Below, one piece after another: positions 823 through 59,675 of a stretch of 64,000 nt of DNA (the stretch's first letter is position 1; every line of letters starts with the position of its first letter). Below the pieces are notes generated by a model. It had not been told where the DNA came from, made no database searches, and worked only from the letters and a program-made list of their open reading frames with translations. Source of the stretch: Rufibacter sp. DG15C. GTDB lineage: Bacteria; Bacteroidota; Bacteroidia; Cytophagales; Hymenobacteraceae. A program made the position numbers and the translations under genes. Where the stretch lies: assembly GCF_001577755.1 (NCBI RefSeq), contig NZ_CP010776.1:1798001-1862000 (forward strand). The letters are read 5' to 3'.

Positions 823-864
823 GCCGTTTTTGGCCTCTTTTCTGAAAAACAAGCCAAAAACGGC
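823..864. repeat. PAL palindrome 1
   Basis: The outer stem GCCGTTTTTGGC / GCCAAAAACGGC is perfect over 12 bp, around a TTTTCTGAAAA core. Confidence 0.85.
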
Positions 865-919
865 AGCTTTGGTATCTGAAAGTATTATTGAAGTATCGTT
901 AGAAGAAGTTTCTCTTCAT

Positions 920-1549
920 CTAGCTAATCCATGTTGTTCTGCACCAATCAGTGACATTTCCATCTTTATTAAGGAGAATATAATAAGATAGTCCTGCTGG
1001 GTCGTGAGTCGCATGGGTGTTAATGTACACCAGATAGAGTTCGTCAAACTCTATTGCGTTATAAACAGTGATGTAGTGGGCAGAGCCAAAAAGGTCATAT
1101 CTCCATTTTCTCCAGTAATGGTTGATTTTTCCATATCTGATTTTCCTGTTCTTTCCCTTAGAGACTTTTGTAAACACTTTAGGTACAGTTAACTTTGAAT
1201 TCGAGTAGTCGAAGGTGGTGTCAATTAAATGGTTTTGCAGTTGCTTCTCAAGTGATGATATTTTCTTTACCCAGTTGATTCCGCTTGTCTGCACACCGGC
1301 TCTTTCTTTATTCTTATTCTCGCTTATCTTACAAAAAGATAGCATCCAGAGCGTGCTTTTAGATGATTCTATATCATGAAAACCAAGTATCACTTTGCCG
1401 TCGTATCGAAAGCTACTTACTTTCCTTTCTTTAGGTAAAATATCAGTCCCAAGGAAGTTGACTGCGCTCTGCTCAATACTCAAATCCTTTTTCTGTGAAT
1501 AAGCATCAAAGCAACTCAAGTAGAGAAACAGTAGTAGTATCTTTTTCAA
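920..1549 (-). CDS. hypothetical secreted protein, 209 aa
   Basis: The N-terminus (MKKILLLFLYLSCFDAYSQ) is a typical signal peptide with likely cleavage after YSQ or just before it, so the product is probably periplasmic or outer-membrane associated. I do not recognise the family. The mature part is rich in Lys, Ser, Tyr and Trp and has no visible motif. Its base composition is more AT-rich than the RsmI-like gene 20 bp upstream, which suggests a recent or poorly conserved gene. It is the last gene on this strand before a terminator. Confidence 0.6.
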   Translation of the reverse strand: MKKILLLFLYLSCFDAYSQKKDLSIEQSAVNFLGTDILPKERKVSSFRYDGKVILGFHDIESSKSTLWMLSFCKISENKNKERAGVQTSGINWVKKISSLEKQLQNHLIDTTFDYSNSKLTVPKVFTKVSKGKNRKIRYGKINHYWRKWRYDLFGSAHYITVYNAIEFDELYLVYINTHATHDPAGLSYYILLNKDGNVTDWCRTTWIS

Positions 1550-1569
1550 CCTTTATTATTAATGTTAAC

Positions 1570-2283
1570 CTACCGTTTATAAATCAAAAACACCGCCGGC
1601 TGTTTGTGCAGATCTGGAACTTTGCCTTTCCAGTTAGCCACGGTCTTGGTTTGGATGAATTCATTGGGGCCGGTGATGTTGGCTGCAATGCAGAGTTTGG
1701 TGTCCTTGCTTAAGTTCTGTAGCAGGTCCTCAATCATCTGGCGGTTGCGGTAGGGCGTCTCCATGAAAATCTGGGTTTGGTCTTTCTGCTGCATCTCCTT
1801 CTCCAGTCCGCGCAAAGCTTGTAACCGGTCCCGTTTTTCAATAGGCAAATACCCATGAAACGCGAAGGACTGTCCATTGAAGCCAGACGCCATCAAACCC
1901 ATCAAAATCGCTGAAGGTCCTACTAAGGGCACTACTTTGATGCCGTTCTGGTGTGCCAACCGAGCCAGTTCTGCGCCGGGGTCTGCCACGCCGGGACAAC
2001 CCGCCTCAGAGACTACGCCGCCGTCCTGGCCTGCCAGCAAGGGCTTCAGCGCTGCCGACAGTTCAGTGTCTGACGAGTCTTTGTCAATGACCGTAATCTG
2101 CAATTCTTCAATGACCTGCGTTGGTGCAATGGATTTGATGTAGCGGCGGGCCGTGCGGGCATTCTCCACTAGAAAGTACTTTAATTGCGCGGTGACTTCA
2201 GCCACTTGCCGGCAAATGACGGCGTTGGCGGTATCTTCTGCCAAGACCGTGGGGATGAGGAATAGGGTGCCTTTGGTGCTCAT
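1570..2283 (-). CDS. RsmI-like SAM-dependent methyltransferase (tetrapyrrole methylase fold)
   Basis: The 237-aa protein begins MSTKGTLFLIPTVL and carries the features of the RsmI/YraL family: an early LFLIPT strand, SEAGCPGVADPG near residue 95 (SAM-binding loop) and VPLVGPSAILM near 125. RsmI methylates the 2'-O of C1402 in 16S rRNA. Bacteroidota often carry a second, more divergent member, so the exact substrate is uncertain. The ATG at 2283 is chosen because upstream residues are not family-like and because it lies 1 bp after the stop of the hydrolase gene at 2285, making a tight two-gene operon. Confidence 0.8.
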   Translation of the reverse strand: MSTKGTLFLIPTVLAEDTANAVICRQVAEVTAQLKYFLVENARTARRYIKSIAPTQVIEELQITVIDKDSSDTELSAALKPLLAGQDGGVVSEAGCPGVADPGAELARLAHQNGIKVVPLVGPSAILMGLMASGFNGQSFAFHGYLPIEKRDRLQALRGLEKEMQQKDQTQIFMETPYRNRQMIEDLLQNLSKDTKLCIAANITGPNEFIQTKTVANWKGKVPDLHKQPAVFLIYKR

Positions 2284-2284
2284 C

Positions 2285-3052
2285 TTAGGCTTGCAGGAAC
2301 TGGTTGACGATGGCAAAGAACTCCTGCGGCTTTTCGGCGTGTAGCCAGTGGCCGGCTCCTTCAATGGTTTCTATGCGCGCCTGCGGGAACAACTTTTGAA
2401 TCTCTGCCGTGTCTTGCTCTGGTTTGATGTAACGGGAATTTCCGCCTCTAATAAACAGCGTAGGTTTGTTGAACGGCGTGTCAGAAACTACTTGGTCCAG
2501 GATGCTGGGCAGGTTAGCCTCAATGGCGTCAATGTTCAAGCGCCAGCCGAAGGTGTTGTCCTCTTTGCGGTATAGGTTCTTGAGCAGGAACATGCGCGTG
2601 CCCACGTCACTCTCTTTCTGGGCTAATATGGCATCTGCGTCGTTGCGGCTTTGCAGGGTGTTCAAATCAATGGAGCGTAGACCTTCCAGAATAGCGTCAT
2701 GGTGCGGCGGATAGGCTTTAGGGGCAATGTCCGCGACAATCAACTTAGAGAGTTTGTCTGGGTGTTGCACGGCAAAATTCATAGCTACTTTTCCGCCCAT
2801 GGAATGCCCCAGAATGATAGGGTTCTGGATGTTGTGTTGTTCAATAAACTCAGCCAGGTCATCGGTCATCAACTGGTAGGAGAACTCATCTGAATGCGGA
2901 GAGCGGCCGTGGTTGCGCAGGTCCAGCAGGTACACTTGGTGGGTTTCTGAGAATTGCTTGCCCAAGGTCTGCCAGTTGTCTGAGGTCCCGAAGAGGCCGT
3001 GCATGATGATGAGCGGCGAGCCTTCGCCCAGGGTGCGATAGTGTAATTCCAT
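2285..3052 (-). CDS. alpha/beta-fold hydrolase, YbfF-like
   Basis: The 255-aa protein has a complete alpha/beta-hydrolase core: oxyanion region HGLFGTSDNW, an LLDLRNHGRS motif, the nucleophile elbow GHSMGGK (Ser near residue 103) and the catalytic His in GAGHWLHAEKP near the C-terminus. It matches the short-chain esterase YbfF group; the natural substrate is unknown. It is the first gene of a minus-strand pair with the RsmI-like gene. Confidence 0.82.
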   Translation of the reverse strand: MELHYRTLGEGSPLIIMHGLFGTSDNWQTLGKQFSETHQVYLLDLRNHGRSPHSDEFSYQLMTDDLAEFIEQHNIQNPIILGHSMGGKVAMNFAVQHPDKLSKLIVADIAPKAYPPHHDAILEGLRSIDLNTLQSRNDADAILAQKESDVGTRMFLLKNLYRKEDNTFGWRLNIDAIEANLPSILDQVVSDTPFNKPTLFIRGGNSRYIKPEQDTAEIQKLFPQARIETIEGAGHWLHAEKPQEFFAIVNQFLQA

Positions 3053-3077
3053 ATGAATTGTCCTTAGAGGGAAGTAT

Positions 3078-3104
3078 CGTTTTTGGCCTGTTTTACAGAA
3101 AACA
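3078..3104. repeat. PAL palindrome 2, one degraded arm, overlapping a gene end
   Basis: The left half reads CGTTTTTGGCCTGTTTT and the core ACAGAAAACAG is present, but the right arm has decayed (GATGAATTTCG). The minus-strand gene 3093-3671 takes its last codons and stop from this copy. Confidence 0.65.
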
Positions 3105-3671
3105 GATGAATTTCGTTTTAACCGAGTACGCGGCGCGGGGCCAAAGGGCCTTCAGTTGTTCTAGGTCTATGAGCAAAGAGGTAATGGTCAATTGACTTCC
3201 GTCTGCCAGCGTGAGCGTGAGGTACTTGTAAGGGCTCCAGAAGAAACTGTTGGACGCGCATTTGGTTTCTTGCACCGCGCGCACTTGAGTGGCATCTAAG
3301 TAATACCGTTGGCCCGGCCGTAACAGCAGGGCTACTCCGCTCTTGGCATCAAGCTCCAACGCGCTTTCCTGCTCAAACCGCCAGTACTGGAAGTGCACAA
3401 ACAAGCTAGGCAGGGAGAACAACAGTAAGGCAGACCCAATCCCCGCAGCCAAGCCTTTCTCCAGCATAGTGTCTGTCTGCGCCCTAGGAATCAAACTCAG
3501 AATAGAAGCGCCCAGCCAGGTGCCAATGGCGGACCAGAACACCATCCCGAACTGCCGGGCCGGCGCTAGGTAGTAGACTTTGCTCTTGCGGGAAAAGACC
3601 TTCAGTAGGAAGCCCACCACATAATGCGCCAGCACCAGAAAGGCCGTCATCTTTATGATAGTCCCTATCAT
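3093..3671 (-). CDS. hypothetical membrane protein with PH-like C-terminal domain
   Basis: The 192-aa protein has hydrophobic segments near residues 5-25, 42-62 and 75-95. A soluble C-terminal part of about 90 residues is rich in beta-type sequence (GQRYYLDATQVRAV, YKYLTLTLADGSQLTITSLL), which resembles bacterial PH-like domains. The function is unknown. The final residues KTKFICFL come from a PAL repeat, so the C-terminus appears to have been replaced or extended when the repeat arrived. It sits between the hydrolase and pdxJ on the same strand. Confidence 0.55.
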   Translation of the reverse strand: MIGTIIKMTAFLVLAHYVVGFLLKVFSRKSKVYYLAPARQFGMVFWSAIGTWLGASILSLIPRAQTDTMLEKGLAAGIGSALLLFSLPSLFVHFQYWRFEQESALELDAKSGVALLLRPGQRYYLDATQVRAVQETKCASNSFFWSPYKYLTLTLADGSQLTITSLLIDLEQLKALWPRAAYSVKTKFICFL

Positions 3672-3679
3672 ATGAGGGG

Positions 3680-3717
3680 CGTTTTTGGGCTACTTTTCAG
3701 AAAACAGGCAAAAAACG
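3680..3717. repeat. PAL palindrome 3
   Basis: Arms CGTTTTTGGGCT and AGGCAAAAAACG, two mismatches in the stem; 13 bp from the pdxJ stop codon. Confidence 0.8.
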
Positions 3718-3729
3718 GAAGTTCTAGCA

Positions 3730-4446
3730 TTAGTAGTTGAGTTGGCGCAGGTACAGTTGAATGGTATTCTCCAGGCCAAAATATAGCGCATCACAAATCA
3801 GGGCGTGACCAATGGAAACTTCCTGTAGATTAGGGAGACGCTCTTTCAGGAAACGCAGGTTGTCCAGGTCCAGGTCATGGCCGGCGTTCAGGCCTAGGTT
3901 GCATTGCTGGGCTACTTTGGCGGCCTCGGCGTACGGGGCCACGGCTTTCTCGCGGTCTGCCAGGTACTGAGAGGCGTAGGCCTCGGTGTAGAGTTCTATG
4001 CGGTCTGTGCCCGTCAAGGCGGCGCCTTCTACCTGCTTGTTGTCTGGGTCTACAAAAATGGACGTTCTGATGCCCTGCTCTTTAAACTGCGCGATGATGT
4101 CTACCAGAAAATCTTTGTGCTTGATGGTATCCCAACCAGCGTTAGAGGTGATGGCGTCGGGGGCATCGGGTACCAAGGTTACTTGCTCGGGCTTCACGCT
4201 AAGGACCAGTTGGATGAAGTCTGGCGTGGGGTTTCCTTCAATGTTGAACTCGGTGGTGACGGCGGGTTTCAAGTCCAGAACGTCTTGGTAGCGGATGTGG
4301 CGTTCATCGGGGCGCGGGTGCACGGTGATGCCCTGCGCGCCAAACCGTTCGCAGTCCAATGCCGTTTGAAGAACATTAGGTCGGTTGCCGCCGCGGGCGT
4401 TCCGCAACGTGGCTATTTTATTTATATTTACGCTCAGTTTCGTCAT
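3730..4446 (-). CDS. pdxJ: pyridoxine 5'-phosphate synthase
   Basis: PdxJ condenses 1-deoxy-D-xylulose 5-phosphate with 3-amino-1-hydroxyacetone phosphate to make pyridoxine 5'-phosphate. The 238-aa product has the family start [20 protein letters not shown], then the substrate loops [31 protein letters not shown] and [12 protein letters not shown], and the final [15 protein letters not shown]. The ATG at 4446 is used because the 23 upstream in-frame residues are not part of the family. A candidate promoter lies 40-75 bp upstream. The gene is divergent from the yqeY-type gene at 4572. Confidence 0.95.
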
Positions 4447-4489
4447 GATTGTCGCGTTTGATTTGGTCACTACCCTCATACGGGCTGGG

Positions 4490-4522
4490 CAAAGATAAAA
4501 ACAATTTGACGGCACCCTTCAA
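4490..4522 (-). promoter_or_regulatory. candidate promoter for pdxJ
   Basis: On the minus strand, TATCTTTG (4490-4497) matches the Bacteroidota -7 box TAnnTTTG, with a TTG at 4520-4522 after a 22-bp spacer. Predicted start about 35 bp before the pdxJ ATG. Confidence 0.4.
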
Positions 4523-4571
4523 TAGATGTCTCACGCCGGTTGCCTTTATGGGAGCCTTACAAAATTTAACT

Positions 4572-5033: not shown

Positions 5034-5044
5034 GTATTACCTGA

Positions 5045-5554
5045 TTGAGCACGTTTGACATGTTTCTGCTTCTTCCGGTGGCCTATGGCGCCATTAAAGG
5101 GTTGTGGAAAGGCTTGATTTTAGAGGTTGCCTCTCTGGCCGCGTTGGTGATTATCACGGTCTTTGGGGTGAAACTAGTGAGCATGGCGTCTCCTACCATC
5201 AATGAATGGCTGGGCGACAGCGCCGGCTTCTTGCCGTTTTTGCCATATTTACTGGTGTTCATTGCCATCGGGTTTGCGGTGCGTTTCATTGGCCTTCTCT
5301 TGAAGAAGACTGTTAATCTCACGCCGCTGGGGCTGTTGGATAAAGTGGGCGGTGCCTTCTTTGGGGCGCTCAAGTGGGGGTTTGCCGTGTGCCTGCTGGT
5401 GTACTTCGCCAACAACGCCGGGTTAGACACTGCCTTTGCCACCGTGAAGGAATCCTCTGTCTATCCTTTTTACTTAGAGGCCGCGCCCAGCGCCTGGGCC
5501 TTTGTGCAATGGGTGATTCCGGTGGGCAAAGATGCCTTAGGCGCGCTTCAATAA
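5045..5554 (+). CDS. CvpA family membrane protein
   Basis: The 169-aa protein has four hydrophobic segments and the CvpA signature start (FDMFLLLPVAYGAIKGLWKGLILEVASL). Family members are inner-membrane proteins first linked to colicin V production and also to envelope stress resistance. The TTG at 5045 is used because relatives begin a few residues before the first hydrophobic segment; an ATG at 5060 is the alternative. Confidence 0.85.
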   Translation: MSTFDMFLLLPVAYGAIKGLWKGLILEVASLAALVIITVFGVKLVSMASPTINEWLGDSAGFLPFLPYLLVFIAIGFAVRFIGLLLKKTVNLTPLGLLDKVGGAFFGALKWGFAVCLLVYFANNAGLDTAFATVKESSVYPFYLEAAPSAWAFVQWVIPVGKDALGALQ

Positions 5555-5565
5555 AATTTTCCTTT

Positions 5566-5605
5566 CCGTTTTTGGCCTGTTTTCTGAAAAACAGGCCAAA
5601 AACGG
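5566..5605. repeat. PAL palindrome 4, perfect copy
   Basis: The arms CCGTTTTTGGCCTGTTTT and AAAACAGGCCAAAAACGG are perfect 18-bp complements around CTGA; with flanks TTT/AAA the stem is 21 bp. It lies 11 bp after the cvpA stop. No T-tract follows the stem directly, unlike a standard terminator. Best reference copy of the family in this window. Confidence 0.95.
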
Positions 5606-5632
5606 AAATTCTTTTCTTTCAGTATCTACTCT

Positions 5633-15143: not shown

Positions 15144-15182
15144 CGGAAAAGCCGATGGTGATGCACACCATCGGCTTTTCCG
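15144..15182 (+). terminator. hairpin terminator after ompH
   Basis: CGGAAAAGCCGATGGTG pairs with CACCATCGGCTTTTCCG around ATGCA, giving a 17-bp perfect stem whose distal arm contains TTTT. It is directly followed by a PAL element. Confidence 0.75.
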
Positions 15183-15218
15183 TTTTTTGCCTATTTTACC
15201 CAAAACAAGCCAAAAACG
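15181..15218. repeat. PAL palindrome 5, in the rluD leader
   Basis: Arms CGTTTTTTGCCT and AAGCCAAAAACG with few mismatches. It ends 2 bp before the rluD ATG, so this copy is at a gene start, not a gene end. Confidence 0.8.
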
Positions 15219-15220
15219 AC

Positions 15221-16285
15221 ATGATCTCTTCTCTGGACCAGGAAGATGAAGCTGCCAACAGCCTAGATTCTGACGACCTCTTTGAACACCACCGCATTGT
15301 CGTGGACAAAGGACAGGCCCTGCTGCGCGTTGATAAGTTCTTGATGGACCGCTTGCCCAACGTGACACGTAACAAACTGCAGGAAGCTATCAAGGCCGAG
15401 TCTGTGCGGGTGAACGGTCTTTCTATTAAGGCTAGCTACAAGGTAAAGCCCTTGGATGTGATTACCATCACACTAGCAGACCCTCCTCGTGACACAGACA
15501 TAGTACCAGAAGACATTCCTTTAAACATTGTCTTTGAGGACGAGGACCTGATGATTATAAACAAGGCCGCTGGCATGGTGGTGCACCCAGCGTACAACAA
15601 CTGGTCTGGCACCTTGGTAAACGGATTGGTGTTTTACCTGCAAAATCTGCCCACCACTCGCAACGGCGAGATCAGGCCAGGTTTGGTGCACCGCATAGAC
15701 AAGGACACGTCAGGGTTGCTTGTAATAGCCAAGACTGAATTGGCCATGGCGCACCTGGCACGGCAGTTCTATGACCACTCCATTGAGCGCACCTATTATG
15801 CATTGGTGTGGGGAGTGCCTGCTCAAGAGAAAGGAACCATCACCGGTCACGTGGGGCGCAGTGCCAAAGACCGCAAGGTGATGGCGGTCTATCCAGAGGG
15901 AGACTTCGGGAAGCACGCTGTGACGCACTATGAGGTGCTGGAAAGCTTTGGCTATTGTAGTCTGCTTAAGTGTAACCTGGAGACGGGACGCACGCACCAG
16001 ATTAGAGCGCATATGAAGTACCTAGGGCATCCGTTGTTTAATGATAGTACCTACGGCGGGGATAAGATTGTCAAAGGCCAACATACGGGCTCTTATAAGG
16101 CTTTCGTGCAGAATACGTTTGATGCTTTGCCTAGGCAGGCACTGCATGCCAAATCCCTAGGCTTTATTCATCCAAGAACCCATGAATTCCTGCAATTTGA
16201 GTCTGACCTACCCGAAGACTTCTTAGCCGGGTTAGCTAAGTGGCGTCAATACGGGAAACTCTTAGAAGACCGAGCTCAGCAGTAA
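15221..16285 (+). CDS. rluD: RluD-type large-subunit pseudouridine synthase
   Basis: The enzyme makes pseudouridines in 23S rRNA. The product has an N-terminal S4 domain (RVDKFLMDRLPNVTRNKLQEAI, about 30-95) and the RluA-family catalytic motif VHRIDKDTSGLLVIAKT (Asp near residue 155), followed by GRTHQIRAHMKYLGHPL. The ATG at 15221 gives 354 aa and is preferred: the in-frame ATG at 15155 would place a terminator and the whole PAL element inside the coding region. RluD rather than RluC is inferred from the S4 domain and length. Confidence 0.9.
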   Translation: MISSLDQEDEAANSLDSDDLFEHHRIVVDKGQALLRVDKFLMDRLPNVTRNKLQEAIKAESVRVNGLSIKASYKVKPLDVITITLADPPRDTDIVPEDIPLNIVFEDEDLMIINKAAGMVVHPAYNNWSGTLVNGLVFYLQNLPTTRNGEIRPGLVHRIDKDTSGLLVIAKTELAMAHLARQFYDHSIERTYYALVWGVPAQEKGTITGHVGRSAKDRKVMAVYPEGDFGKHAVTHYEVLESFGYCSLLKCNLETGRTHQIRAHMKYLGHPLFNDSTYGGDKIVKGQHTGSYKAFVQNTFDALPRQALHAKSLGFIHPRTHEFLQFESDLPEDFLAGLAKWRQYGKLLEDRAQQ

Positions 16286-16288
16286 GAA

Positions 16289-16327
16289 CCGTTTTTGGCC
16301 TGTTTTCTAGAAAGTAGCCTAAAAACG
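16289..16327. repeat. PAL palindrome 6
   Basis: The left arm is canonical (CCGTTTTTGGCCTGTTTT) and the right is AGCCTAAAAACG, the form seen in copy 8. Starts 4 bp after the rluD stop. Confidence 0.85.
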
Positions 16328-16334
16328 AAGCCAT

Positions 16335-16370
16335 AAAAAAGGGTCGCTCTAAGCTAGAGCGACCCTTTTC
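16335..16370. terminator. bidirectional terminator between converging genes
   Basis: AAAAAAGGGTCGCTCT pairs with AGAGCGACCCTTTT around AAGCT, giving T-tails on both strands. Serves rluD (plus) and the TPR gene (minus). Confidence 0.85.
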
Positions 16371-23445: not shown

Positions 23446-23540
23446 GCACCTGCCATTTTGTAAAAGAGAAAATGTCCGTTTTTGGCCTGCTTTCTGTAAA
23501 ACAGGCCAAAAACGGCAAGGGCACACCAGATGGCAGGTGC
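23446..23540. repeat. nested inverted repeat around PAL 7
   Basis: GCACCTGCCAT (23446-23456) and ATGGCAGGTGC (23530-23540) are perfect 11-bp inverted repeats enclosing a PAL copy. ATTTTGT and ACAAAAT next to them extend the symmetry loosely. Confidence 0.7.
23476..23515. repeat. PAL palindrome 7
   Basis: Arms CCGTTTTTGGCCTG and CAGGCCAAAAACGG are perfect over 14 bp. The only copy in the window not close to a gene end or start. Confidence 0.9.
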
Positions 23541-26431: not shown

Positions 26432-26462
26432 GAGAGCCCCGCCTTATAAGCGGGGCTTTCGT
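26432..26462 (+). terminator. terminator after cysteine desulfurase
   Basis: AGCCCCGC and GCGGGGCT pair around CTTATAA, followed by TTCGTTTTT. The T-rich tail is supplied by the start of PAL 8. Confidence 0.8.
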
Positions 26463-26497
26463 TTTTAGGCTGTTTCCCCAGAAATAGCCTAAAAACG
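26460..26497. repeat. PAL palindrome 8, compensated arms
   Basis: Arms CGTTTTTAGGCT and AGCCTAAAAACG are perfect complements but differ from the reference at two paired positions. Confidence 0.9.
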
Positions 26498-26548
26498 ACT
26501 TATGCGTGTGGAACATGATTTTTAGAGGTTAAAGCAGGTATTTTGAAA

Positions 26549-26687: not shown

Positions 26688-28628
26688 ATGAATCCAGAAT
26701 TAGAGCTCGTTTCAAATTATAGTCAAGAGAATCAAAAGGAGGACATTTATAGGCTGTTGATTGAAGGCATTAAGGACTATGCCATTTTCCTGATAGACCC
26801 CGAAGGCCATATAGCCACCTGGAACGCAGGTGCCAAGAAAATAAATCAGTATGACCAGGAAGAGGTCATGGGCAAGCACTTCTCTGTGTTCTATACGCCA
26901 GAATCCATTGCCAAAAACTACCCAGCGTATGAGTTAGAGCAAGCCTTAAAGAACGGCCGCTTTGAGGACGAGGGCTGGCGGGTGCGCAAGGACGGTATTG
27001 TCTTCTGGGCCAACGTCATCTTTACGCCCATCTACAATGAAAGCGGCAAACACCTGGGCTTTTCCAAGATTACCCGTGACCTCTCTGAACGCAAGAAGGC
27101 CGAGGACGACCTCTACAAAGCCTATGAAAATCTAAAAGACAGCGAAGAACGGTTCCGGCGCTTGGTAGAAGGCGTTACAGACTACGCCATCTTCATGCTG
27201 GACTCTGCCGGCCACGTGGCCACCTGGAACGAGGGCGCCCGTCGCATAAAAGGGTATGAGGCCCATGAGATCATCGGGAAGTACTTCGGTAAGTTTTATA
27301 GCCGTGATTCTGTGCTGGACGGGTATCCAGAATATGAGTTGAAGGAAGCCCGCGCCCACGGCCGCTTTGAGGACGAGGGCTGGCGTTACCGCAAAGATGG
27401 CACCGCTTTCTGGGCCAATGTGATCATCACCGCCATTTACAATGACAAGAAGGAGCTGATTGGCTTCTCTAAAATCACCCGCGACCTTACCGAGAAGAAG
27501 CAACTGGAGGAACAACTCTTCAGGACCAACGAGGAACTGCGCGAAAGCGAAGAAAAGTCCAGACTTCTGATAGACAGCGTGCAGGACTATGCCATTCTCA
27601 TGCTCAACACAGAGGGCTATATCATGAGCTGGAACACTGGCGCCGAACGCATTAAAGGCTACACGGCCCAGGAGGTGATAGGCAAGCACTTTTCTGTCTT
27701 TTACCCTAGAGAGGCTATTGAAAATGGGTTTCCGGCGTTTGAGCTGAGCAAAGCCATACAAGACGGCCGCTTTGAGGACGAGGGCTGGCGCGTACGCAAG
27801 GACGGGGCCGCCTTCTGGGCCAACGTGGTCTTATCACCGGTGTACAACTCAGACCATAGGCTGCTGGGCTTCGCGAAGATTACCAGAGACTTAACAGAGC
27901 GCCGCCGCAACGAGGACCTCATGCAGAAAAACAAGGAGCTGGTGCGCATCAACAACGACCTAGACAATTTTGTGTACACGGCCTCGCATGACCTCAAATC
28001 CCCAATCGCTAACCTAGAAGGGCTGCTGCTTGCCTTAAAAGAGGACTTGGGCGCAAACTGTGTGCCGCACCAGAACATTTTGTCCATGATGGACGGCTCT
28101 CTGCAAACCCTGCGCAAAGTGATCAATGACCTTTCTGAGGTAACCAAGCTGCAGCAGGCAAAAGATGAGATAGAGCACGTGAACCTGCTACAGCTGCTAG
28201 AAGAAGTGAAGGCCAACCTGCGGGATACCATCAAAACCAGCAACGCCGAAATTGTAGTGGGGGATATGGACTATGAAATGCTATCCTATTCCCGAAAGAA
28301 CATGCGCAGCATTCTGTATAACCTGGTGTCTAACGCCATCAAGTACCGCGACCCGCAACGTGCGCCCAAGGTGACGCTCAGTACCAAGGTGTCAGAAAAT
28401 GGGGACTTCATTCTCTCTATCATAGACAACGGGCTAGGGATTCCAGCACACCAAGTACCTAAGATTTTTGCCATGTACAAGCGTGTGCATGACCATGTAG
28501 AAGGCACGGGTATTGGTCTTTATTTGGTTAAAAAGATTCTGGACAACTCTGGCGACGACATCAAAGTGTTCAGCACGGTAGGGCAGGGCACCGCTTTCCA
28601 TTTGCATTTCAAAAACCAGAAGGTTTAA
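26688..28628 (+). CDS. sensor histidine kinase with three tandem PAS domains
   Basis: The 646-aa protein has no membrane segment, so it is probably cytoplasmic. Three PAS domains (about 20-135, 155-270, 290-405) repeat with an exact 135-residue period. Each contains DYAI, W-N-G-A and an identical GRFEDEGWR block (from residues 90, 225 and 360). A HisKA domain follows with FVYTASHDLKSP (His434), then an HATPase domain with NLVSNAIKYRD, DNGLGIP and GTGIGLYLV. The kinase half is closely similar to the CHASE kinase at 47768. No response regulator is adjacent. PAS ligand unknown. Confidence 0.92.
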   Translation: MNPELELVSNYSQENQKEDIYRLLIEGIKDYAIFLIDPEGHIATWNAGAKKINQYDQEEVMGKHFSVFYTPESIAKNYPAYELEQALKNGRFEDEGWRVRKDGIVFWANVIFTPIYNESGKHLGFSKITRDLSERKKAEDDLYKAYENLKDSEERFRRLVEGVTDYAIFMLDSAGHVATWNEGARRIKGYEAHEIIGKYFGKFYSRDSVLDGYPEYELKEARAHGRFEDEGWRYRKDGTAFWANVIITAIYNDKKELIGFSKITRDLTEKKQLEEQLFRTNEELRESEEKSRLLIDSVQDYAILMLNTEGYIMSWNTGAERIKGYTAQEVIGKHFSVFYPREAIENGFPAFELSKAIQDGRFEDEGWRVRKDGAAFWANVVLSPVYNSDHRLLGFAKITRDLTERRRNEDLMQKNKELVRINNDLDNFVYTASHDLKSPIANLEGLLLALKEDLGANCVPHQNILSMMDGSLQTLRKVINDLSEVTKLQQAKDEIEHVNLLQLLEEVKANLRDTIKTSNAEIVVGDMDYEMLSYSRKNMRSILYNLVSNAIKYRDPQRAPKVTLSTKVSENGDFILSIIDNGLGIPAHQVPKIFAMYKRVHDHVEGTGIGLYLVKKILDNSGDDIKVFSTVGQGTAFHLHFKNQKV

Positions 28629-28652: not shown

Positions 28653-28697
28653 CATTTCCGCTAGGGATAGAGCCATGTTCTAACCTTAGCGGAAATT
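28653..28697. terminator. hairpin after triple-PAS kinase
   Basis: ATTTCCGCTAGGG pairs with CCTTAGCGGAAAT around a 19-bp loop with one mismatch; TTGTTTTTA follows, shared with PAL 9. Confidence 0.65.
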
Positions 28698-28698
28698 T

Positions 28699-28735
28699 GT
28701 TTTTAGCCTCTTTCCCAGAAAACAACCCAAAAACG
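28699..28735. repeat. PAL palindrome 9
   Basis: GTTTTTAGCCTCTTTCCC with right arm AACCCAAAAACG; imperfect. It follows a hairpin, like copies 5, 8 and 20. Confidence 0.75.
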
Positions 28736-28777
28736 CCTGCCCAGAAAATGCCTAGCTATAAATAAACTGGGAACGTT

Positions 28778-29785: not shown

Positions 29786-29824
29786 CCGTTTTTTACCTAT
29801 TTTCTGGAAATTAGGTAAAAAACG
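29786..29824. repeat. PAL palindrome 10, compensated arms
   Basis: CGTTTTTTACCTA and TAGGTAAAAAACG are perfect over 13 bp although two stem positions differ from the reference. Starts 9 bp after the Sua5-type gene. Confidence 0.9.
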
Positions 29825-29864
29825 AGAAGCATCTCCTTTAAGTAGCCACGCTCATTCAACACAG

Positions 29865-30095: not shown

Positions 30096-30134
30096 CCATT
30101 TTTGAGCTATTTCCCAGAAAGCAAGCCAAAAACG
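30096..30134. repeat. PAL palindrome 11
   Basis: Left arm CCATTTTTGAGCT and right arm AAGCCAAAAACG, partly decayed. Confidence 0.7.
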
Positions 30135-30142
30135 ACCTCAAC

Positions 30143-30182
30143 AAAAAAGGCTCCCGTTCATCCAAGAACGGGAGCCTTTTAC
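30143..30182 (-). terminator. terminator of the S9 peptidase gene
   Basis: AAAAAAGGCTCCCGTTC and GAACGGGAGCCTTTT form a long stem around ATCCAA, with T-tails on both strands. Lies 20 bp past the minus-strand stop. Confidence 0.85.
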
Positions 30183-32400: not shown

Positions 32401-32474
32401 TTTAGTTTGTTAGATAGTTCTCAGCCTTAAAAATAGGGATTTATTTCGGCTTTGGCCTAAGAACGATGGGAAGG

Positions 32475-32512
32475 CGTTTTTCGCCTGTTTTGAAGAAAAG
32501 AGGCGAAAAACG
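32475..32512. repeat. PAL palindrome 12, compensated arms
   Basis: CGTTTTTCGCCT and AGGCGAAAAACG are perfect; the G-to-C change in the left arm is matched by C-to-G in the right. Lies 75 bp upstream of the peptidase ATG. Confidence 0.9.
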
Positions 32513-32594
32513 AATTGCTTCGGCTGAGCGGTGGAAAGTTATCTTACTGCGGAAATGTAATAGGTGAGACGCAGTATTCTTTTATTATAATAAC

Positions 32595-36096: not shown

Positions 36097-36136
36097 CCGT
36101 TTTTGGCGTGTTTTCCAGAAAAGAGCCCAAAATCGG
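36097..36136. repeat. PAL palindrome 13, in a divergent promoter region
   Basis: CCGTTTTTGGCGTGTTTT with right arm AGCCCAAAATCGG; several mismatches. Lies between the divergent SDR and HAAO genes, 90 bp from the HAAO ATG. Confidence 0.75.
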
Positions 36137-37194: not shown

Positions 37195-37208
37195 ATTCTC
37201 TACCCATT

Positions 37209-38298: not shown

Positions 38299-38346
38299 CC
38301 TCTATGTTTAATATCAGCCAATTGGTGTTCAGATATTTTTCAACAC

Positions 38347-38380
38347 AAAGGCCCGCCTTCTCTAAAGAAAGCGGGCCTTT
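38347..38380. terminator. bidirectional terminator
   Basis: AAAGGCCCGCCTTCT and AGAAAGCGGGCCTTT form the stem, with T-rich tail on both strands, between the converging Mrr-like and yebC genes. Confidence 0.85.
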
Positions 38381-38390
38381 GAATGTATCT

Positions 38391-38429
38391 CCGTTTTTAG
38401 CCTTTTTTTTAGAAAACAGGCCAAAAACC
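38391..38429. repeat. PAL palindrome 14
   Basis: CCGTTTTTAGCC with right arm AGGCCAAAAACC; 5 bp from the yebC stop. Confidence 0.8.
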
Positions 38430-38434
38430 AAAGG

Positions 38435-40092: not shown

Positions 40093-40148
40093 AGGCCATT
40101 CTTTTGGAGAAAACTGATAATCAATGCATAAGCTAGTGAATTTATTCT

Positions 40149-40175
40149 AGTTTTTCAAAAAATAGCCCAAAAACG
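40149..40175. repeat. PAL palindrome 15, truncated
   Basis: Only AGTTTTTC and the right half AATAGCCCAAAAACG remain; it ends 2 bp from the stop of the RidA-family gene. Confidence 0.6.
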
Positions 40176-40177
40176 AC

Positions 40178-40716: not shown

Positions 40717-40805
40717 TGTCATCCTGAAAGGACCTTGTGAGAAAGTTGTAGTAGCATTTATAAAGAGTTTGTCTAGTTCGCCCACAAGGTCCTTTCAGGA
40801 TGACA
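40717..40805. repeat. TGTCATCC-family inverted-repeat element, copy C
   Basis: The ends 40717-40739 and 40783-40805 are perfect 23-bp inverted repeats beginning TGTCATCCTGAAAGGACC. The spacer is 43 bp, shorter than in copies A and D, and includes TGTCTAGTTCG before the right end. Confidence 0.9.
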
Positions 40806-40833
40806 AAATGGATAGTTTGAATTGGCACATTGT

Positions 40834-40867
40834 GTTAGCCTCATTTCTGAGAATCAGACCAAAAACG
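40834..40867. repeat. PAL palindrome 16, decayed left arm
   Basis: GTTAGCCTCATTTCTGAGAA then AGACCAAAAACG; the left CGTTTTT is lost. Confidence 0.6.
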
Positions 40868-40919
40868 TTTCTGTTACTATTGAACAACAATCAGCAATCG
40901 ACAATCAACAATCAAATCT

Positions 40920-40957
40920 GTTTTTAGCCTGATTTCCAGAAAATAGCCTAAAAACGG
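40920..40957. repeat. PAL palindrome 17
   Basis: GTTTTTAGCCTGATTTCC with right arm ATAGCCTAAAAACGG. It abuts the AT-rich CAATCAACAATC tract. Confidence 0.8.
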
Positions 40958-43618: not shown

Positions 43619-43680
43619 AAAAAACACGTTCGTTTTTGGCCTGCTTTCTAGAAATCAGGCCAAAAACGAACGTGTTTTTT
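43619..43680. terminator. terminator built around PAL 18
   Basis: AAAAAACACGTT before and AACGTGTTTTTT after the PAL copy extend its stem and provide a T-tract on both strands. This is the one place in the window where PAL forms the body of a canonical-looking terminator. Confidence 0.75.
43631..43668. repeat. PAL palindrome 18
   Basis: CGTTTTTGGCCTG and CAGGCCAAAAACG are perfect over 13 bp around a TTTCTAGAAA core. Confidence 0.9.
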
Positions 43681-45710: not shown

Positions 45711-46241
45711 TTAAAAAAGACTCGTCTGGTACACACCGCTCATCTTGGCCTCATGCACTAGCAGCCATTTCTTGCGCCAGAGTCCCCCGGCATAGCCTAC
45801 CAGTTCTCCCTTCGCGCCAATGACGCGATGGCAGGGCACGATGACCAGCCACGGATTGGCGCCGTTGGCCACGCCCACCGCCCGCACGGCGCCCGGGTTC
45901 TCAAAGCGCTTGGCCAAGCCCAAGTAAGTTTCTGTCTTGCCGGTTGGTATCTGTTGCAAGGCCTGCCAGACCTGCTGCTGAAAAGTGGTGCCCTGCGGTT
46001 GTAAAGGCAAATCAAACGTCTGGCGTTCACCGGCAAAGTAGGCGTTCAACTGCGCTTCGGCCTCTCTTAAAATAGCAGGGATAAAATCAGAATCCGTTTC
46101 TGGCTCGTTTTCTGGAAAAGAGGCCGAAAACAGATGGGTGTCATTGCCGGTCAGGCGAAGCGTTCCCAAGGGACTGGGCAGGTGCAGAACATATGGGGCA
46201 GAGGCGGTAGGCATGATGGAAATTTCAGGAAATTTAGCCAA
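45711..46241 (-). CDS. ogt: methylated-DNA-protein cysteine methyltransferase
   Basis: Ogt transfers alkyl groups from O6-alkylguanine to its own cysteine. The 176-aa product has a short N-terminal domain, GTTFQQQVWQALQQIPTGKTETY, and the active-site IVPCHRVIG (Cys137), followed by GYAGGLWRKKWLL. Residues 37-50 (LFSASFPENEPETD) are encoded by an in-frame PAL copy. In the family this stretch is a variable surface loop before a helix, so the domain should still fold. An ATG at 46214 is an alternative start. Confidence 0.92.
   Translation of the reverse strand: MAKFPEISIMPTASAPYVLHLPSPLGTLRLTGNDTHLFSASFPENEPETDSDFIPAILREAEAQLNAYFAGERQTFDLPLQPQGTTFQQQVWQALQQIPTGKTETYLGLAKRFENPGAVRAVGVANGANPWLVIVPCHRVIGAKGELVGYAGGLWRKKWLLVHEAKMSGVYQTSLF
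46094..46133. repeat. PAL palindrome 19, inside the ogt coding region
   Basis: CCGTTTCTGGCTCGTTTT then CTGGAAAAG and AGGCCGAAAACAG match a PAL consensus at 35 of 40 positions. The copy is in frame in ogt. Read in the same frame, PAL 22 encodes FLASFPENSPKTG, close to the ogt residues FSASFPENEPETD. Confidence 0.85.
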
Positions 46242-47675: not shown

Positions 47676-47715
47676 CCGTTTTTAGCCTGATTTCCAGGAA
47701 ATAGGCCAAAAACGG
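47676..47715. repeat. PAL palindrome 20
   Basis: CCGTTTTTAGCCTGATTTCC with right arm AGGCCAAAAACGG; starts 7 bp after the kmo stop. Confidence 0.85.
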
Positions 47716-50660: not shown

Positions 50661-50706
50661 AAAAACGAATATCCCCGAGGACAATTCTTCGGGGATATTC
50701 TTTTTT
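50661..50706 (+). terminator. terminator after the CHASE kinase
   Basis: GAATATCCCCGAGGA and TTCTTCGGGGATATTC form a long stem followed by TTTTTT. The T-run also forms the start of PAL 21. Confidence 0.85.
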
Positions 50707-50738
50707 GGGGTATTTCCCAGAAAATAGGCTAAAAACGG
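50701..50738. repeat. PAL palindrome 21, decayed left arm
   Basis: TTTTTTGGGGTATTTCCCAG then ATAGGCTAAAAACGG; 6 bp from the stop of the DUF4252 gene. Confidence 0.7.
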
Positions 50739-51308: not shown

Positions 51309-51316
51309 AGAATGTT

Positions 51317-51354
51317 GTTTTTAGCCTGTTTTACGGGAAACAGCCCAAAAACGG
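51317..51354. repeat. PAL palindrome 22a (between DUF4252 and GNAT genes)
   Basis: GTTTTTAGCCTGTTTTACGG with right arm CAGCCCAAAAACGG; 9 bp from the GNAT stop. Confidence 0.8.
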
Positions 51355-53892: not shown

Positions 53893-53932
53893 CCATTTTT
53901 GGCCTCTTTCCCAGAAAACAGCCCAAAAACGG
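53893..53932. repeat. PAL palindrome 22
   Basis: CCATTTTTGGCCTCTTTCCC with right arm CAGCCCAAAAACGG; 2 bp from the LytTR-regulator stop. It abuts an AATCAACAATC tract (53866-53892). Confidence 0.8.
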
Positions 53933-53934
53933 GA

Positions 53935-54717: not shown

Positions 54718-54743
54718 TTGGTAATTGCTGATGGTTAATTGTT

Positions 54744-54781
54744 GATTTTGGCTTGTTTCCTGGAAAAGAGGCGAAAAACGG
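54744..54781. repeat. PAL palindrome 23, abutting a stop codon
   Basis: Left arm GATTTTGGCTTGTTTCC, right arm AGGCGAAAAACGG. Its last base is directly next to the kinase stop codon (54782-54784). A TTAATTGTTGATT tract lies on the other side. Confidence 0.7.
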
Positions 54782-55825: not shown

Positions 55826-55852
55826 GGCTGAAAGGTAAAGATTTTTGGGAAG

Positions 55853-55886
55853 ACCCGCGCGCTCCCAAAAGGAGAAGCGCGCGGGT
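55853..55886. repeat. strong GC-rich hairpin between TPR and kinase genes
   Basis: ACCCGCGCGCT and AGCGCGCGGGT are perfect 11-bp complements around a 12-base loop. No T-tract follows on the minus strand, so this may be an attenuator or RNA-stability element rather than a terminator. Confidence 0.7.
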
Positions 55887-55897
55887 AAAACAAGAGA

Positions 55898-56530: not shown

Positions 56531-56599
56531 GGAAGTAGATTTTAAGTTGTTGGTTATGAATTAATTGTTGATTGTCAATTGCTGGTGAATTTTAGGTAT

Positions 56600-56639
56600 C
56601 CGTTTTTAGCCTGATTTCTGGGAAAGAGGCCAAAAACGG
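56600..56639. repeat. PAL palindrome 24
   Basis: CCGTTTTTAGCCTGATTTCT with right arm AGGCCAAAAACGG. Tracts of ATTGTTGATTG (before) and CTGCTGATTG (after) flank it. Confidence 0.85.
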
Positions 56640-56699
56640 ATGGTTGGTGACTGCTGATTGTTTAGTGTCAATCTCTCAATCACTCAATCATCCATTCCC

Positions 56700-58853: not shown

Positions 58854-58989
58854 AGCGGTTGCGGTTAGGTTCTGAGCAAAGGTGCACCGCCCGCCAAGGC
58901 TATGAAATTAAAAGAGGATGAACTGTAGAGAGAGGTAGATGAACTGTCAAGAGGCCATGATGAACGTTTCATGGGATTGAACAGATTCT

Positions 58990-59028
58990 CCGTTTTTGGC
59001 CTCTTTCCGGTAAAACAGCCCAAAAACG
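58990..59028. repeat. PAL palindrome 25
   Basis: CCGTTTTTGGCCTCTTTCC with right arm CAGCCCAAAAACG; next to a terminator hairpin. Confidence 0.8.
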
Positions 59029-59030
59029 AA

Positions 59031-59054
59031 AGAGCCCGCTTACCTGCGGGCTCT
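59031..59054 (-). terminator. terminator of the Lys/Ala-rich gene
   Basis: AGAGCCCGC and GCGGGCTCT pair around TTACCT. On the minus strand TTTCGTTTTT follows, the T-run being supplied by PAL 25. Confidence 0.75.
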
Positions 59055-59080
59055 TCATGGTTATAGTAAGTGGAATGCGA

Positions 59081-59524
59081 TTACGCTTTCTTCTTCTCTT
59101 TGGCAGCGGCTTTTTTAGCGGCCTCTTTTTCTTTGGCAGCGGCGGCTTTCTCCTTGGCGGCTAATTTTTTGGCAGCAGCCTTTTGCTTGGCCTCAGCGGC
59201 TTTGGCTTTTTCCTTTTCTTTGGCGGCTAACGCTTTTTGCTTAGCGGCTTCTTTCTTCTGTTGCTCTTTGGCTTTAGCCGCAGCGGCTTTCTCTTTGTCA
59301 GCGGCCTTCTTAGCGGCCTCCTTTTCTTTAATAGCGGCGGCCTTGGCTTTCTCTTTTTCCTTGGCGGCCTGGGCCTTGGCTAGGCCTTCGGCTTTCTTCT
59401 CAGCGGCCTTTTGCTTGGCCAGCTCTTTCTTTTCTTTCTCCTTGTCTTGTGAAGACTGAGCCTGCGCACTGCCCACAAAAAGGGCCAACACCAACAGCAG
59501 AGAGGTTGCGTACTTCTTCAACAT
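59081..59524 (-). CDS. secreted Lys/Ala/Glu-rich low-complexity protein, 147 aa
   Basis: A signal peptide (MLKKYATSLLLVLALFVGSAQAQ) is followed by about 120 residues made almost only of Lys, Ala and Glu in short repeats (AAKEKEKAKAAE, AAAKEKEAAKKA). These would form one long, highly charged helix. No domain is recognised. It could bind acidic surface polymers or nucleic acids, or be a spacer in the periplasm; none of this is shown. The codon pattern AAG/GCC and repeats suggest growth by slippage. Confidence 0.65.
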   Translation of the reverse strand: MLKKYATSLLLVLALFVGSAQAQSSQDKEKEKKELAKQKAAEKKAEGLAKAQAAKEKEKAKAAAIKEKEAAKKAADKEKAAAAKAKEQQKKEAAKQKALAAKEKEKAKAAEAKQKAAAKKLAAKEKAAAAKEKEAAKKAAAKEKKKA

Positions 59525-59634
59525 AGTAATAATGGGTTTTGTGTTATTTTGCTAAAAGTAGAAAGGAATCAAGAAAGTTTCACCAAGGTGCGGCTTTAAT
59601 AAATTTGTTATGCTTCTAAGCCTCAAGTATAAAT

Positions 59635-59675
59635 CCGTTTTTGGCCTATTTTCTAGGAAAGAGGCCTAAAACAGG
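59635..59675. repeat. PAL palindrome 26
   Basis: CCGTTTTTGGCCTATTTTC with right arm AGGCCTAAAACAGG; its end overlaps the start of the next terminator by 3 bp. Confidence 0.75.

What the first reader, a model, noticed from the sequence alone, without database searches (positions are those of the whole stretch)
823..59675. A 38-40 bp palindromic repeat (PAL) occurs about 27 times, roughly once per 2.4 kb
Seen directly: copies share arms like CCGTTTTTGGCCTGTTTT / AAAACAGGCCAAAAACGG around a TTTCnnGAAA core. They start near 823, 3078, 3680, 5566, 15181, 16289, 23476, 26460, 28699, 29786, 30096, 32475, 36097, 38391, 40149, 40834, 40920, 43631, 46094, 47676, 50701, 51317, 53893, 54744, 56600, 58990 and 59635. 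The copies are unevenly spread: none lies between 5606 and 15180, or between 16328 and 23475, where long operons run. REP/BIME-type repeats are known in other phyla; I do not know a described family with this sequence.
Basis: partly seen in the sequence, partly recalled or inferred. Interest (0 to 1): 0.72.

Follow-up and report, generated by a model that had tools for sequence, protein, structure and literature searches.

The report
Palindromic DNA tag at gene ends
Bacteria of the genus Rufibacter carry a 40-letter palindromic DNA tag at many gene ends, on the order of 1,600 copies in this genome, apparently kept in place by selection and looking more like a landing site for a protein than like a folding hairpin or a jumping repeat.

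Summary
The repeat is real: all 27 listed copies are present (24 full, 3 weak), far above chance, and no others score in the window. The genome belongs to Rufibacter; sampling suggests about 1,600 copies. All 15 congeners held have the family, with shifting consensus; outside the genus it is nearly absent (53 of 53 exact-pattern stretches are Rufibacter). It is not a classical REP: no GTAG/CGTC foot, no Y1 transposase found here, no clear enrichment beside Y1 genes in congeners, no BIME pairing. Copies sit mostly one per gap at 3' gene ends (182 gaps with one, 8 with two; 47 with two or more expected). In the sister species 98 of 102 have a copy in the same gap while flanks diverged. Some columns barely change; the arms vary nearly independently; spacing is rigid; no G·U/A·C bias. 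This favours a duplex site for a symmetric protein. A terminator stem abuts 41 of 338 copies, using PAL's T-run; in tandem gaps 20 of 20 stand on the incoming-gene side. Best reading: protein-bound transcription-unit boundary element, protein unknown. Against: a perfect-palindrome minority and slight stem covariation in four species leave room for a hairpin role or arm copying.

The parts
824..863 (.). PAL copy, convergent gap; terminator-type stem 775-813 alongside
   Evidence: score 59.0
3077..3116 (.). weak/partial PAL copy, between two - genes; the same degraded form is present in sister species G013
   Evidence: 25.7
3679..3718 (.). PAL copy, about 12 bp from the stop of the - gene 3730-4515
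   Evidence: 51.4
5566..5605 (.). PAL copy, all 18 stem pairs complementary, about 12 bp after the + stop at 5554
   Evidence: 63.5
15147..15179 (+). terminator-type stem-loop directly abutting the PAL at 15180, whose CCGTTTTT serves as its T-run
15180..15219 (.). PAL copy; falls inside ORF 15155-16285 as listed, so that gene's true start is probably downstream
   Evidence: 48.6
16289..16328 (.). PAL copy, about 4 bp after the + stop at 16285; terminator-type stem 16337-16369 follows
   Evidence: 58.3
23476..23515 (.). PAL copy, divergent gap
   Evidence: 59.2
26459..26498 (.). PAL copy; right arm looks rewritten as the complement of the left when compared with G013
   Evidence: 48.7
28697..28736 (.). 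PAL copy, tandem gap
   Evidence: 51.6
29786..29825 (.). PAL copy, about 10 bp after the + stop; no separate copy at the projected place in G013 (the same G013 gap holds the counterpart of 30096)
   Evidence: 46.2
30096..30135 (.). PAL copy; terminator-type stem 30145-30180 lies between it and the stop of the - gene
   Evidence: 49.0
32474..32513 (.). PAL copy, tandem gap
   Evidence: 46.4
36097..36136 (.). PAL copy, divergent gap
   Evidence: 53.0
38391..38430 (.). PAL copy, about 5 bp from the stop of the - gene; terminator-type stem 38346-38381 alongside
   Evidence: 52.2
40137..40176 (.). weak copy: only one half-site recognisable, also in G013
   Evidence: 20.3
40829..40868 (.). weak/partial PAL copy
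   Evidence: 20.7
40918..40957 (.). PAL copy, divergent gap
   Evidence: 54.7
43630..43669 (.). PAL copy inside a 62-bp palindrome 43619-43680 (31-nt arms, 97% complementary)
   Evidence: 60.8
46094..46133 (.). PAL copy (inside ORF 45711-46241, which may not be a gene)
   Evidence: 44.5
47676..47715 (.). PAL copy, about 8 bp after the + stop
   Evidence: 59.2
50699..50738 (.). PAL copy, convergent gap, about 7 bp from the - gene's stop
   Evidence: 48.5
51315..51354 (.). PAL copy, tandem - genes, about 10 bp from the stop
   Evidence: 53.6
53893..53932 (.). PAL copy, about 3 bp from the - stop
   Evidence: 56.9
54742..54781 (.). PAL copy, directly next to the - stop
   Evidence: 47.2
56600..56639 (.). 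PAL copy, tandem gap
   Evidence: 58.0
58990..59029 (.). PAL copy, tandem gap
   Evidence: 54.1
59635..59674 (.). PAL copy, tandem gap
   Evidence: 52.7
59675..59710 (-). terminator-type stem-loop abutting the PAL on the side of the incoming - gene

Best explanation
PAL is a duplex DNA element: two 18-bp half-sites (consensus CGTTTTTGGCCTGTTTTC) in fixed inverted order around a 4-bp centre with a pyrimidine-purine step. I think a symmetric (dimeric or tetrameric) DNA-binding protein occupies it, and that it marks the ends of transcription units: the bound protein stops or buffers RNA polymerase in either direction, and the outer T-run can serve as the release tract of an upstream terminator stem. 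Shown by computation: about one copy per gene-end gap, retention at orthologous places, strong column-specific constraint, rigid half-site geometry, near-independence of the arms in most copies, and abutting terminator stems on the incoming-gene side. Inferred: that a protein binds, and that the effect is on transcription (termination or insulation). The protein is not identified.
For: Geometry: 273 inverted half-site pairs at exactly the PAL spacing, 2 at one base less, none at any other spacing in the range tested; isolated half-sites not above the reversed control, 5 against 7. Near-independent arms: Watson-Crick pairing 72.9% over 20 pairs against 72.2 +- 0.3% with 3' letters re-dealt, 339 distinct copies; no excess in the 24 window copies, in G013 or in G012. 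No RNA strand signature: 236 G.U against 221 A.C cells in 189 transcription-oriented tandem copies, and both arms about equally conserved (columns 1, 4, 9 and 15 differ at uncorrected p 0.003-0.05). Selection per copy: 98 of 102 own copies lie in gaps that hold a copy in sister G013 (counted one to one within gaps, at most 94 of 102); in 74 one-to-one pairs columns 5, 6, 16, 17 change in 0-3%, columns 1, 9, 11, 14, 18, 20 in 30-37%, and 20-bp flanks compared without gaps are 51% identical on average against 82% for PAL. Gene ends: a copy in 72 of 98 convergent, 176 of 330 tandem and 27 of 88 divergent gaps of 40 bp or more; 137 of 187 tandem copies with unequal distances lie nearer the upstream stop. 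One per gap: 94/182/8 gaps with 0/1/2 copies against 155/83/47 (0/1/2+) for length-weighted random placement. Occupancy 63-73% in the four chromosome quarters. Terminator stems abut 41 of 338 copies (1 of the same flanks shuffled); of the 39 in classified gaps 20 are in tandem gaps, and 20 of 20 lie between the incoming gene's stop and PAL; 19 are in convergent gaps, where either side is an incoming side; 0 of 30 copies in divergent gaps have one.
Against: No protein, footprint or transcript data. A minority of copies are perfect palindromes beyond chance (18 of 18 pairs: 18 against 1.6 expected in G000; also G013 5 against 0.9, G006 5 against 0.2, G012 14 against 3.3 in the larger sample, none in the smaller). 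Whole-stem pairing is slightly but measurably above re-dealt arms in G000 (0.751 against 0.739, z 3.8), G008 and G014 (z 3.3, 3.6), a pooled set (z 3.0) and G006 (13.26 against 12.73 +- 0.14 of 18 pairs). Single pairs: in G000 pairs 1, 7 and 8 have z 3.6-5.5; columns 7-8 in G006 and 8 in G012 z about 4. So pairing, or arm copying, plays some part. In G000/G013 pairs, changes on both sides exceed independence (74 against 57), 17 of them keeping the pair; 10 of 74 pairs are more alike when one copy is reverse-complemented. 30 copies sit in divergent gaps, where an end-of-unit role does not apply. The 88% of copies without an abutting stem would need protein alone to act. Strong stems are not rarer in tandem gaps with PAL (29 of 158) than without (21 of 143).
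Confidence: 0.43

Rival explanations
1. REP-like mobile element: copies were spread as single-strand hairpins by a Y1 (RAYT) transposase and now decay; the 3'-end location is insertion preference or tolerance.
For: Short palindrome, high copy, intergenic and 3' biased like E. coli REPs; copy number at up to 1 mismatch varies 0 to 871 within the genus; congeners carry Y1 proteins, many with the motifs NHLH / YIHQNP, which fit a Bacteroidetes group whose published REPs lack GTAG (PMC6006769 passages); in G013 and G006 one Y1 gene at the same locus has PALs on both sides and G000 has a single PAL and no Y1 gene there; over all 20 fetched Y1 loci PAL lies on both sides in 5, slightly above the 3.3 expected. 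An excess of perfect palindromes could mark young copies; 3 of 106 G013 copies have no counterpart in G000.
Against: No Y1 protein found in G000 although its copies are kept; no clear enrichment of PAL beside Y1 genes: both sides in 5 of 20, with ordinary genes at 26 of 131 in G013, 10 of 20 in G012, 18 of 84 in G014, 13 of 72 in G008; high positional conservation; site-specific, not uniform, divergence; no GTAG/CGTC foot; no BIME pairing; low strict counts are at least partly a shifted consensus, since G008 (0 at up to 1 mismatch) has 99 diverged copies in 220 kb.
Confidence: 0.2
2. RNA hairpin at mRNA 3' ends: intrinsic terminator, exonuclease block or ribosome-stall element acting after transcription.
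For: Position close after stop codons; predicted RNA fold of a single PAL about -14 kcal/mol; near-perfect copies have slightly more T in the 8 bases after them in the incoming gene's direction (3.26 against 2.63, p 0.008; 5 or more T in 10 of 50 against 37 of 261); small stem excess in G000, G006, G008 and G014.
Against: Pairing only slightly above re-dealt arms, and fold energy not distinguishable from chimeras (-14.0 against -13.1, p 0.20); no G.U over A.C bias when oriented by transcription; T only 36% in the 10 bases after PAL; rigid loop length; terminator stems are separate structures abutting PAL.
Confidence: 0.2
3. Chromosome-architecture site (nucleoid-associated protein, gyrase or similar) that sits between genes because that is where it is tolerated.
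For: Even spread over the chromosome; dyad with T-runs about 11 bp apart in each half and a YR centre (TG 96, CA 97, TA 47, CG 8 of 339); preference for convergent gaps, where supercoiling accumulates (recalled from the REP literature).
Against: One per gap rather than random by length of gap; abutting terminator stems on the incoming side; not found outside this genus.
Confidence: 0.13

Closest known systems
REP elements / REPINs / BIMEs with RAYT (TnpA_REP) transposases
   Same: short (about 40 bp) palindromes, hundreds to thousands of copies, intergenic, 3' of genes, often close to the stop
   Different: no GTAG/CGTC foot, no transposase found in this genome, no clear enrichment beside Y1 genes in congeners, no paired arrangement, fixed dyad spacing, pairing mostly not maintained, positions largely conserved between two species
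Atypical REPs flanking Bacteroidetes TnpA_Y1 subclass 2.6 (RAYT group 5), PMC6006769
   Same: phylum, lack of GTAG, weaker structure; congeners carry proteins with the subclass 2.6 motifs
   Different: PAL is not clearly enriched around those genes; the published sequences are in supplementary files that I could not read, so identity is not excluded
Intrinsic terminators
   Same: gene ends; 41 of 338 copies lend their T-run to an abutting terminator stem
   Different: most copies have no T-run after the palindrome, and the arms do not covary as a stem should
Operator or nucleoid-protein sites such as those of Noc, ParB, SlmA or MatP (recalled, from no call)
   Same: dyad-symmetric duplex sites repeated around a chromosome; the core TTTC-YR-GAAA loosely resembles Noc and parS sites as I recall them
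   Different: many more copies, 40 bp instead of 12-16, about one per gene-end gap; no protein known

Membership tests
REP / RAYT system | short palindrome, high copy, extragenic | tested here: met
   339 copies in 864 kb, 21 with centre inside a called gene
REP / RAYT system | GTAG/GTGG or CGTC tetranucleotide foot | tested here: not met
   no conserved tetranucleotide in the 10 bases either side of 189 tandem copies; palindrome starts NCGT on both strands
REP / RAYT system | cognate Y1 transposase in the genome | tested here: not met
   PF01797 at E 0.001: 0 in G000, 1 to 6 in each of 15 congeners; G013 Y1 protein: no match in G000 at E 10
REP / RAYT system | repeat flanks the transposase gene (REPtron) | tested here: not met
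   all 20 fetched Y1 loci (of 45 matches): PAL on both sides within 500 bp in 5, on at least one side in 15; about 3.3 with both expected from the per-species shares of ordinary genes. A motif filter had kept 13 genes with 2 of 13; it dropped L053, L055 and L072, which have PAL on both sides. Small sample
REP / RAYT system | hairpin pairing conserved | tested here: inconclusive
   bulk of copies not paired beyond chance; perfect-palindrome minority in excess; small whole-stem excess in G000, G006, G008, G014
REP / RAYT system | inverted pairs (BIME/REPIN) | tested here: not met
   smallest spacings 72 and 89 bp; 2 of 298 neighbour spacings under 100 bp
Atypical REP of TnpA_Y1 subclass 2.6 | same sequence as the published atypical structures | not testable with these tools
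Intrinsic terminator | stem followed by T-run in the direction of transcription | tested here: not met
   T 36% in the first 10 bases after PAL against about 30% further on, 189 tandem copies; 5 or more T of 8 in 52 of 347 incoming readings
Uptake sequence (DUS/USS) | single short motifs in excess, paired only sometimes | tested here: not met
   isolated half-sites 5 against 7 in reversed control
MITE | insertion with empty sites and target duplication | tested here: inconclusive
   4 of 102 own and 3 of 106 G013 copies have no copy in the matching gap, none as a clean 40-bp indel; target duplications not tested
Rfam structured RNA | match at gathering threshold | tested here: not met
   0 matches in the window
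Protein-bound dyad site | fixed spacing, half-site constraint, no need for arm-arm covariation | tested here: met
Protein-bound dyad site | a protein that binds it | not tested
   needs pulldown, EMSA or ChIP

The most novel reading that the evidence does not exclude
A bacterial genus uses a dedicated, sequence-specific DNA-binding protein to mark the end of most transcription units: a genome-wide, protein-dependent and direction-independent terminator or insulator (more like eukaryotic Pol I terminator-protein sites, as I recall them, than like hairpins or Rho), with well over a thousand dyads, each under selection, and a consensus that shifts from species to species as the protein changes.
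Probability: 0.25. Interest if true: 0.9.

Novelty: new variant of a known kind. Interest (0 to 1): 0.62.

Why it matters
Repeats at gene ends are usually explained as selfish REPs or as hairpins. Here sequence comparison shows a family of well over a thousand copies, of which the sampled ones largely keep their place and their half-site letters between two species, while pairing is mostly not kept and no transposase was found. That makes 'what selects for gene-end repeats' directly testable: find the protein, remove one site, read transcription across it. If a protein marks transcription-unit ends genome-wide in a bacterium, it is a new way of delimiting transcription. The perfect-palindrome minority also offers a possible natural record of template-switch arm copying at many sites.

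Tried and rejected
REP/RAYT origin: tested by Pfam search, by a protein search with the sister's Y1 protein (the tool notes that an empty answer without a positive genome shows little), and by flank statistics against ordinary genes; not supported. I first took the PAL-Y1-PAL arrangement in G013 and G006 as a REPtron; the controls showed that ordinary genes often have PALs on both sides too. A first count (2 of 13) used a motif filter that dropped three loci with PAL on both sides; the recount over all 20 loci is 5.

RNA hairpin: I expected covariation; not found in the bulk of copies, no G.U bias. I then saw perfect palindromes with off-consensus arms in G014 and G008, re-tested six species and found a mixed picture, so 'no covariation at all' was dropped. 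Three discordant G000/G013 pairs show one arm with 5 changes and the other with 1 or 2, as if one arm had been copied from the other (n = 3 of 80 pairs). Two of the three have the more palindromic copy in G000; the direction of change was not polarised with an outgroup.

Uptake sequence, Rfam family, viral spread (0 stretches in viral contigs), ori-ter organisation: rejected. Sister genera: a species-adapted motif search gave nothing clearly dyad-symmetric (hits/control: G016 5/1, G017 3/2, G018 1/2, G019 0/2, G020 9/1; arm symmetry 0.34, 0.47, 0.55, none, 0.37, against 0.52-0.73 inside the genus). Only 3 to 5 stretches per sister genus were sampled.

First own-genome pattern had the spacer one base short, so its count of 56 is not a copy number. 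The own-genome covariance search scored only 150 of 6,613 candidates and is not a count either. (no match) used a pattern with the wrong core length.

Limits: genes were called by a home-made codon-usage caller (coding fraction 0.78, starts uncertain). Of 339 copies, 298 fell in called gaps of 40 bp or more. '98 of 102' counts gaps: the 102 copies lie in 94 gaps, 90 of which hold at least one G013 copy; one to one at most 94 copies match; without gaps over 1.5 kb, 86 of 92. 74 gave one-to-one pairs; 80 when gaps with equal numbers were included. The candidate binding protein was not sought by phylogenetic profile.

Full report
What was checked. The same matrix never exceeds 1.0 in 864 kb of reversed sequence, while 339 copies score 18 or more. 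Forty evenly spaced 20-kb stretches hold 312 copies, which extrapolates to about 1,600 in the 4.14-Mb chromosome; pattern counts are 604 (up to 1 mismatch) and 1,053 (up to 2).

Where it occurs. A scan of one genome per species for 84,980 species with a strict pattern gave 53 stretches, all from Rufibacter records; records of the window's own genome or very near it may be left out of that scan. The window's genus is taken to be Rufibacter because contigs of its congeners have the lengths of named Rufibacter contigs (G007 C39, 232,692 bases, R. roseus; G001 C35, 92,763 bases, R. ruber). Within the family held here, 16 of 16 genomes of the window's genus, its own included, match at up to 2 mismatches (18 to 1,359 places) and 6 of 188 others have one or two places; an earlier set of 23 genomes outside the genus had none at up to 1 mismatch. 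Viral contigs: none. Low strict counts in some congeners are at least partly a shift of consensus: a species-adapted search finds 99 copies in 220 kb of G008 (0 at up to 1 mismatch) and 127 in 220 kb of G014, with 1 and 2 control hits, at the same kind of places (G008: 17 of 21 convergent gaps, 16 of 86 centres inside called genes). G012 prefers CGTTTTCGGGCTCATTTC as its half-site.

Anatomy. Each copy is two 18-bp half-sites in inverted order with a 4-bp centre. Of half-site pairs, 273 have exactly this spacing, 2 one base less, none another in the range tested; lone half-sites are not above control. The centre is mostly a YR step: TG 96, CA 97, TA 47, CG 8 of 339. The most conserved letters in G000 are T at columns 5-7, 13, 16 and 17 (96% or more), so that the two T-runs of a half-site lie about 11 bp apart; columns 9, 11, 14, 15 and 20 vary.

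Hairpin or duplex. In 339 distinct copies the two arms pair at 72.9% over 20 pairs, against 72.2 +- 0.3% when right-arm letters are re-dealt among copies; single pairs 1, 7 and 8 are above (z 3.6 to 5.5), pairs 9 to 14 are not, and the central pair is below (z -6.3). The tool's own test on the 24 window copies shows no excess (83.3% against 83.6%). In 189 copies oriented by transcription there are 236 G.U and 221 A.C cells, so no RNA strand signature. RNA fold energies do not differ from chimeras of arms. Against a clean result: with a slightly larger G000 set the stem shows 0.751 against 0.739 (z 3.8), G008 and G014 show z 3.3 and 3.6, a pooled set of G006, G007, G009 and G011 z 3.0, while G013 and G012 show none; a larger G006 sample shows 13.26 against 12.73 +- 0.14 of 18 pairs, a larger G012 sample 13.59 against 13.54 +- 0.12. 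There is also a minority of perfect palindromes: in G000 18 copies pair at all 18 positions against 1.6 expected, with a similar excess in G013, G006 and the larger G012 sample. In three ortholog pairs where one species has a near-perfect and the other a poor palindrome, one arm carries 5 changes and the other 1 or 2, as expected if one arm was copied from the other by template switching (a known process; I saw only the start of the abstracts of PMC7202029 and PMC8794818 in a listing). Near-perfect copies have slightly more T after them in the direction of the incoming gene, so some may serve as ordinary terminators.

Selection on each copy. A 244-kb stretch of the window's chromosome was aligned with the sister G013 (chain identity 82.6%). 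Of 102 copies, 98 lie in gaps that hold a copy in G013; of 106 G013 copies, 103 do in reverse. Counted one to one within gaps at most 94 of 102 match. In 74 one-to-one pairs PAL identity is 82% (random pairs 72%), ungapped 20-bp flanks average 51% (median 45%). Columns 5, 6, 16 and 17 changed in 0-3% of pairs, columns 1, 9, 11, 14, 18 and 20 in 30-37%; 10 of 74 pairs are more alike in reverse complement. Neutral decay of old insertions would not spare some columns almost completely and leave neighbours nearly free.

Position. Copies lie in 72 of 98 convergent, 176 of 330 tandem and 27 of 88 divergent gaps of 40 bp or more; in tandem gaps 137 are nearer the upstream stop and 50 nearer the start. 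In 284 convergent and tandem gaps of 80-500 bp, 182 hold one copy and 8 hold two; random placement by length would give 47 with two or more. Occupancy is 63-73% in the quarters of the chromosome. Next to 41 of 338 copies a stem-loop ends within 3 bp of PAL so that PAL's CGTTTTT forms its T-run; shuffled flanks give 1. Of the 39 in classified gaps, 20 are in tandem gaps and all 20 stand between the incoming gene's stop codon and PAL; 19 are in convergent gaps, where both sides are incoming; none of 30 copies in divergent gaps has one. Two examples in the window are at 15147-15179 and 59675-59710.

REP test. No Y1 transposase match was found in the window's genome. The 15 congeners have 1 to 6 each; 13 genes that passed a motif filter carry NHLH- and YIHQNP-type motifs that fit TnpA_Y1 subclass 2.6, said to be flanked by atypical structures without GTAG (PMC6006769; passages and one section read). 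Over all 20 fetched Y1 loci, 5 have PAL on both sides within 500 bp, against about 3.3 expected from the shares among ordinary genes of the same species. PMC3733652, PMC2817692 and PMC12306157 were read only in the passages found by search terms; none of these passages shows this consensus. Paper searches combining REP, RAYT, Bacteroidetes, Cytophagales and Rufibacter terms found no description of it in titles and abstract starts; the library holds open-licence papers only.

Interpretation. Rigid spacing, half-site constraint, near-independent arms and no strand bias point to a duplex site for a symmetric protein; location, the one-per-gap rule and abutting terminator stems point to transcription-unit ends. 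I therefore favour a protein-bound boundary element (termination or insulation), at 0.43, with the protein unknown. REP descent is possible as history but does not explain present constraint. An RNA-hairpin role is possible for the perfect minority.

Noticed in passing
window 595-738, 40717-40805, 63709-63954; single arm at 37208: A second, unrelated repeat: 23-bp inverted ends TGTCATCCTGAAAGGACCTTGTG / CACAAGGTCCTTTCAGGATGACA around 40-200 bp, like a small MITE; 21 ends (up to 1 mismatch) in 864 kb of this genome.
   Followed up: partly
window 26688-28628: PAS-repeat histidine kinase whose gene aligns to the sister species' region in several registers, which may mean that PAS-repeat number or order differs between the two species.
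   Followed up: no
L071 1902-2453, L072 1902-2453, L113 around 2101: A Y1-type transposase gene downstream of a methylmalonyl-CoA-mutase-like gene (name recalled from the sequence, no call) in G013 and G006, with PAL on both sides; in the window's genome the same place has one PAL and no such gene, as if lost between the two PALs.
   Followed up: partly
PAL family, several species: Excess of perfect palindromes with off-consensus but matching arms: possible record of template-switch arm copying.
   Followed up: partly
window 43619-43680: One PAL is embedded in a 62-bp palindrome with 31-nt arms 97% complementary.
   Followed up: no
window 15155-16285: The listed ATG start of this ORF lies upstream of the end of a terminator-type stem and of a PAL, so the true start is probably later.
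   Followed up: no
G039 C1:218562-218597 and five genomes of genus g3: One or two PAL-like places (2 mismatches) in 6 of 188 family genomes outside the genus; chance or transfer, not looked at.
   Followed up: no
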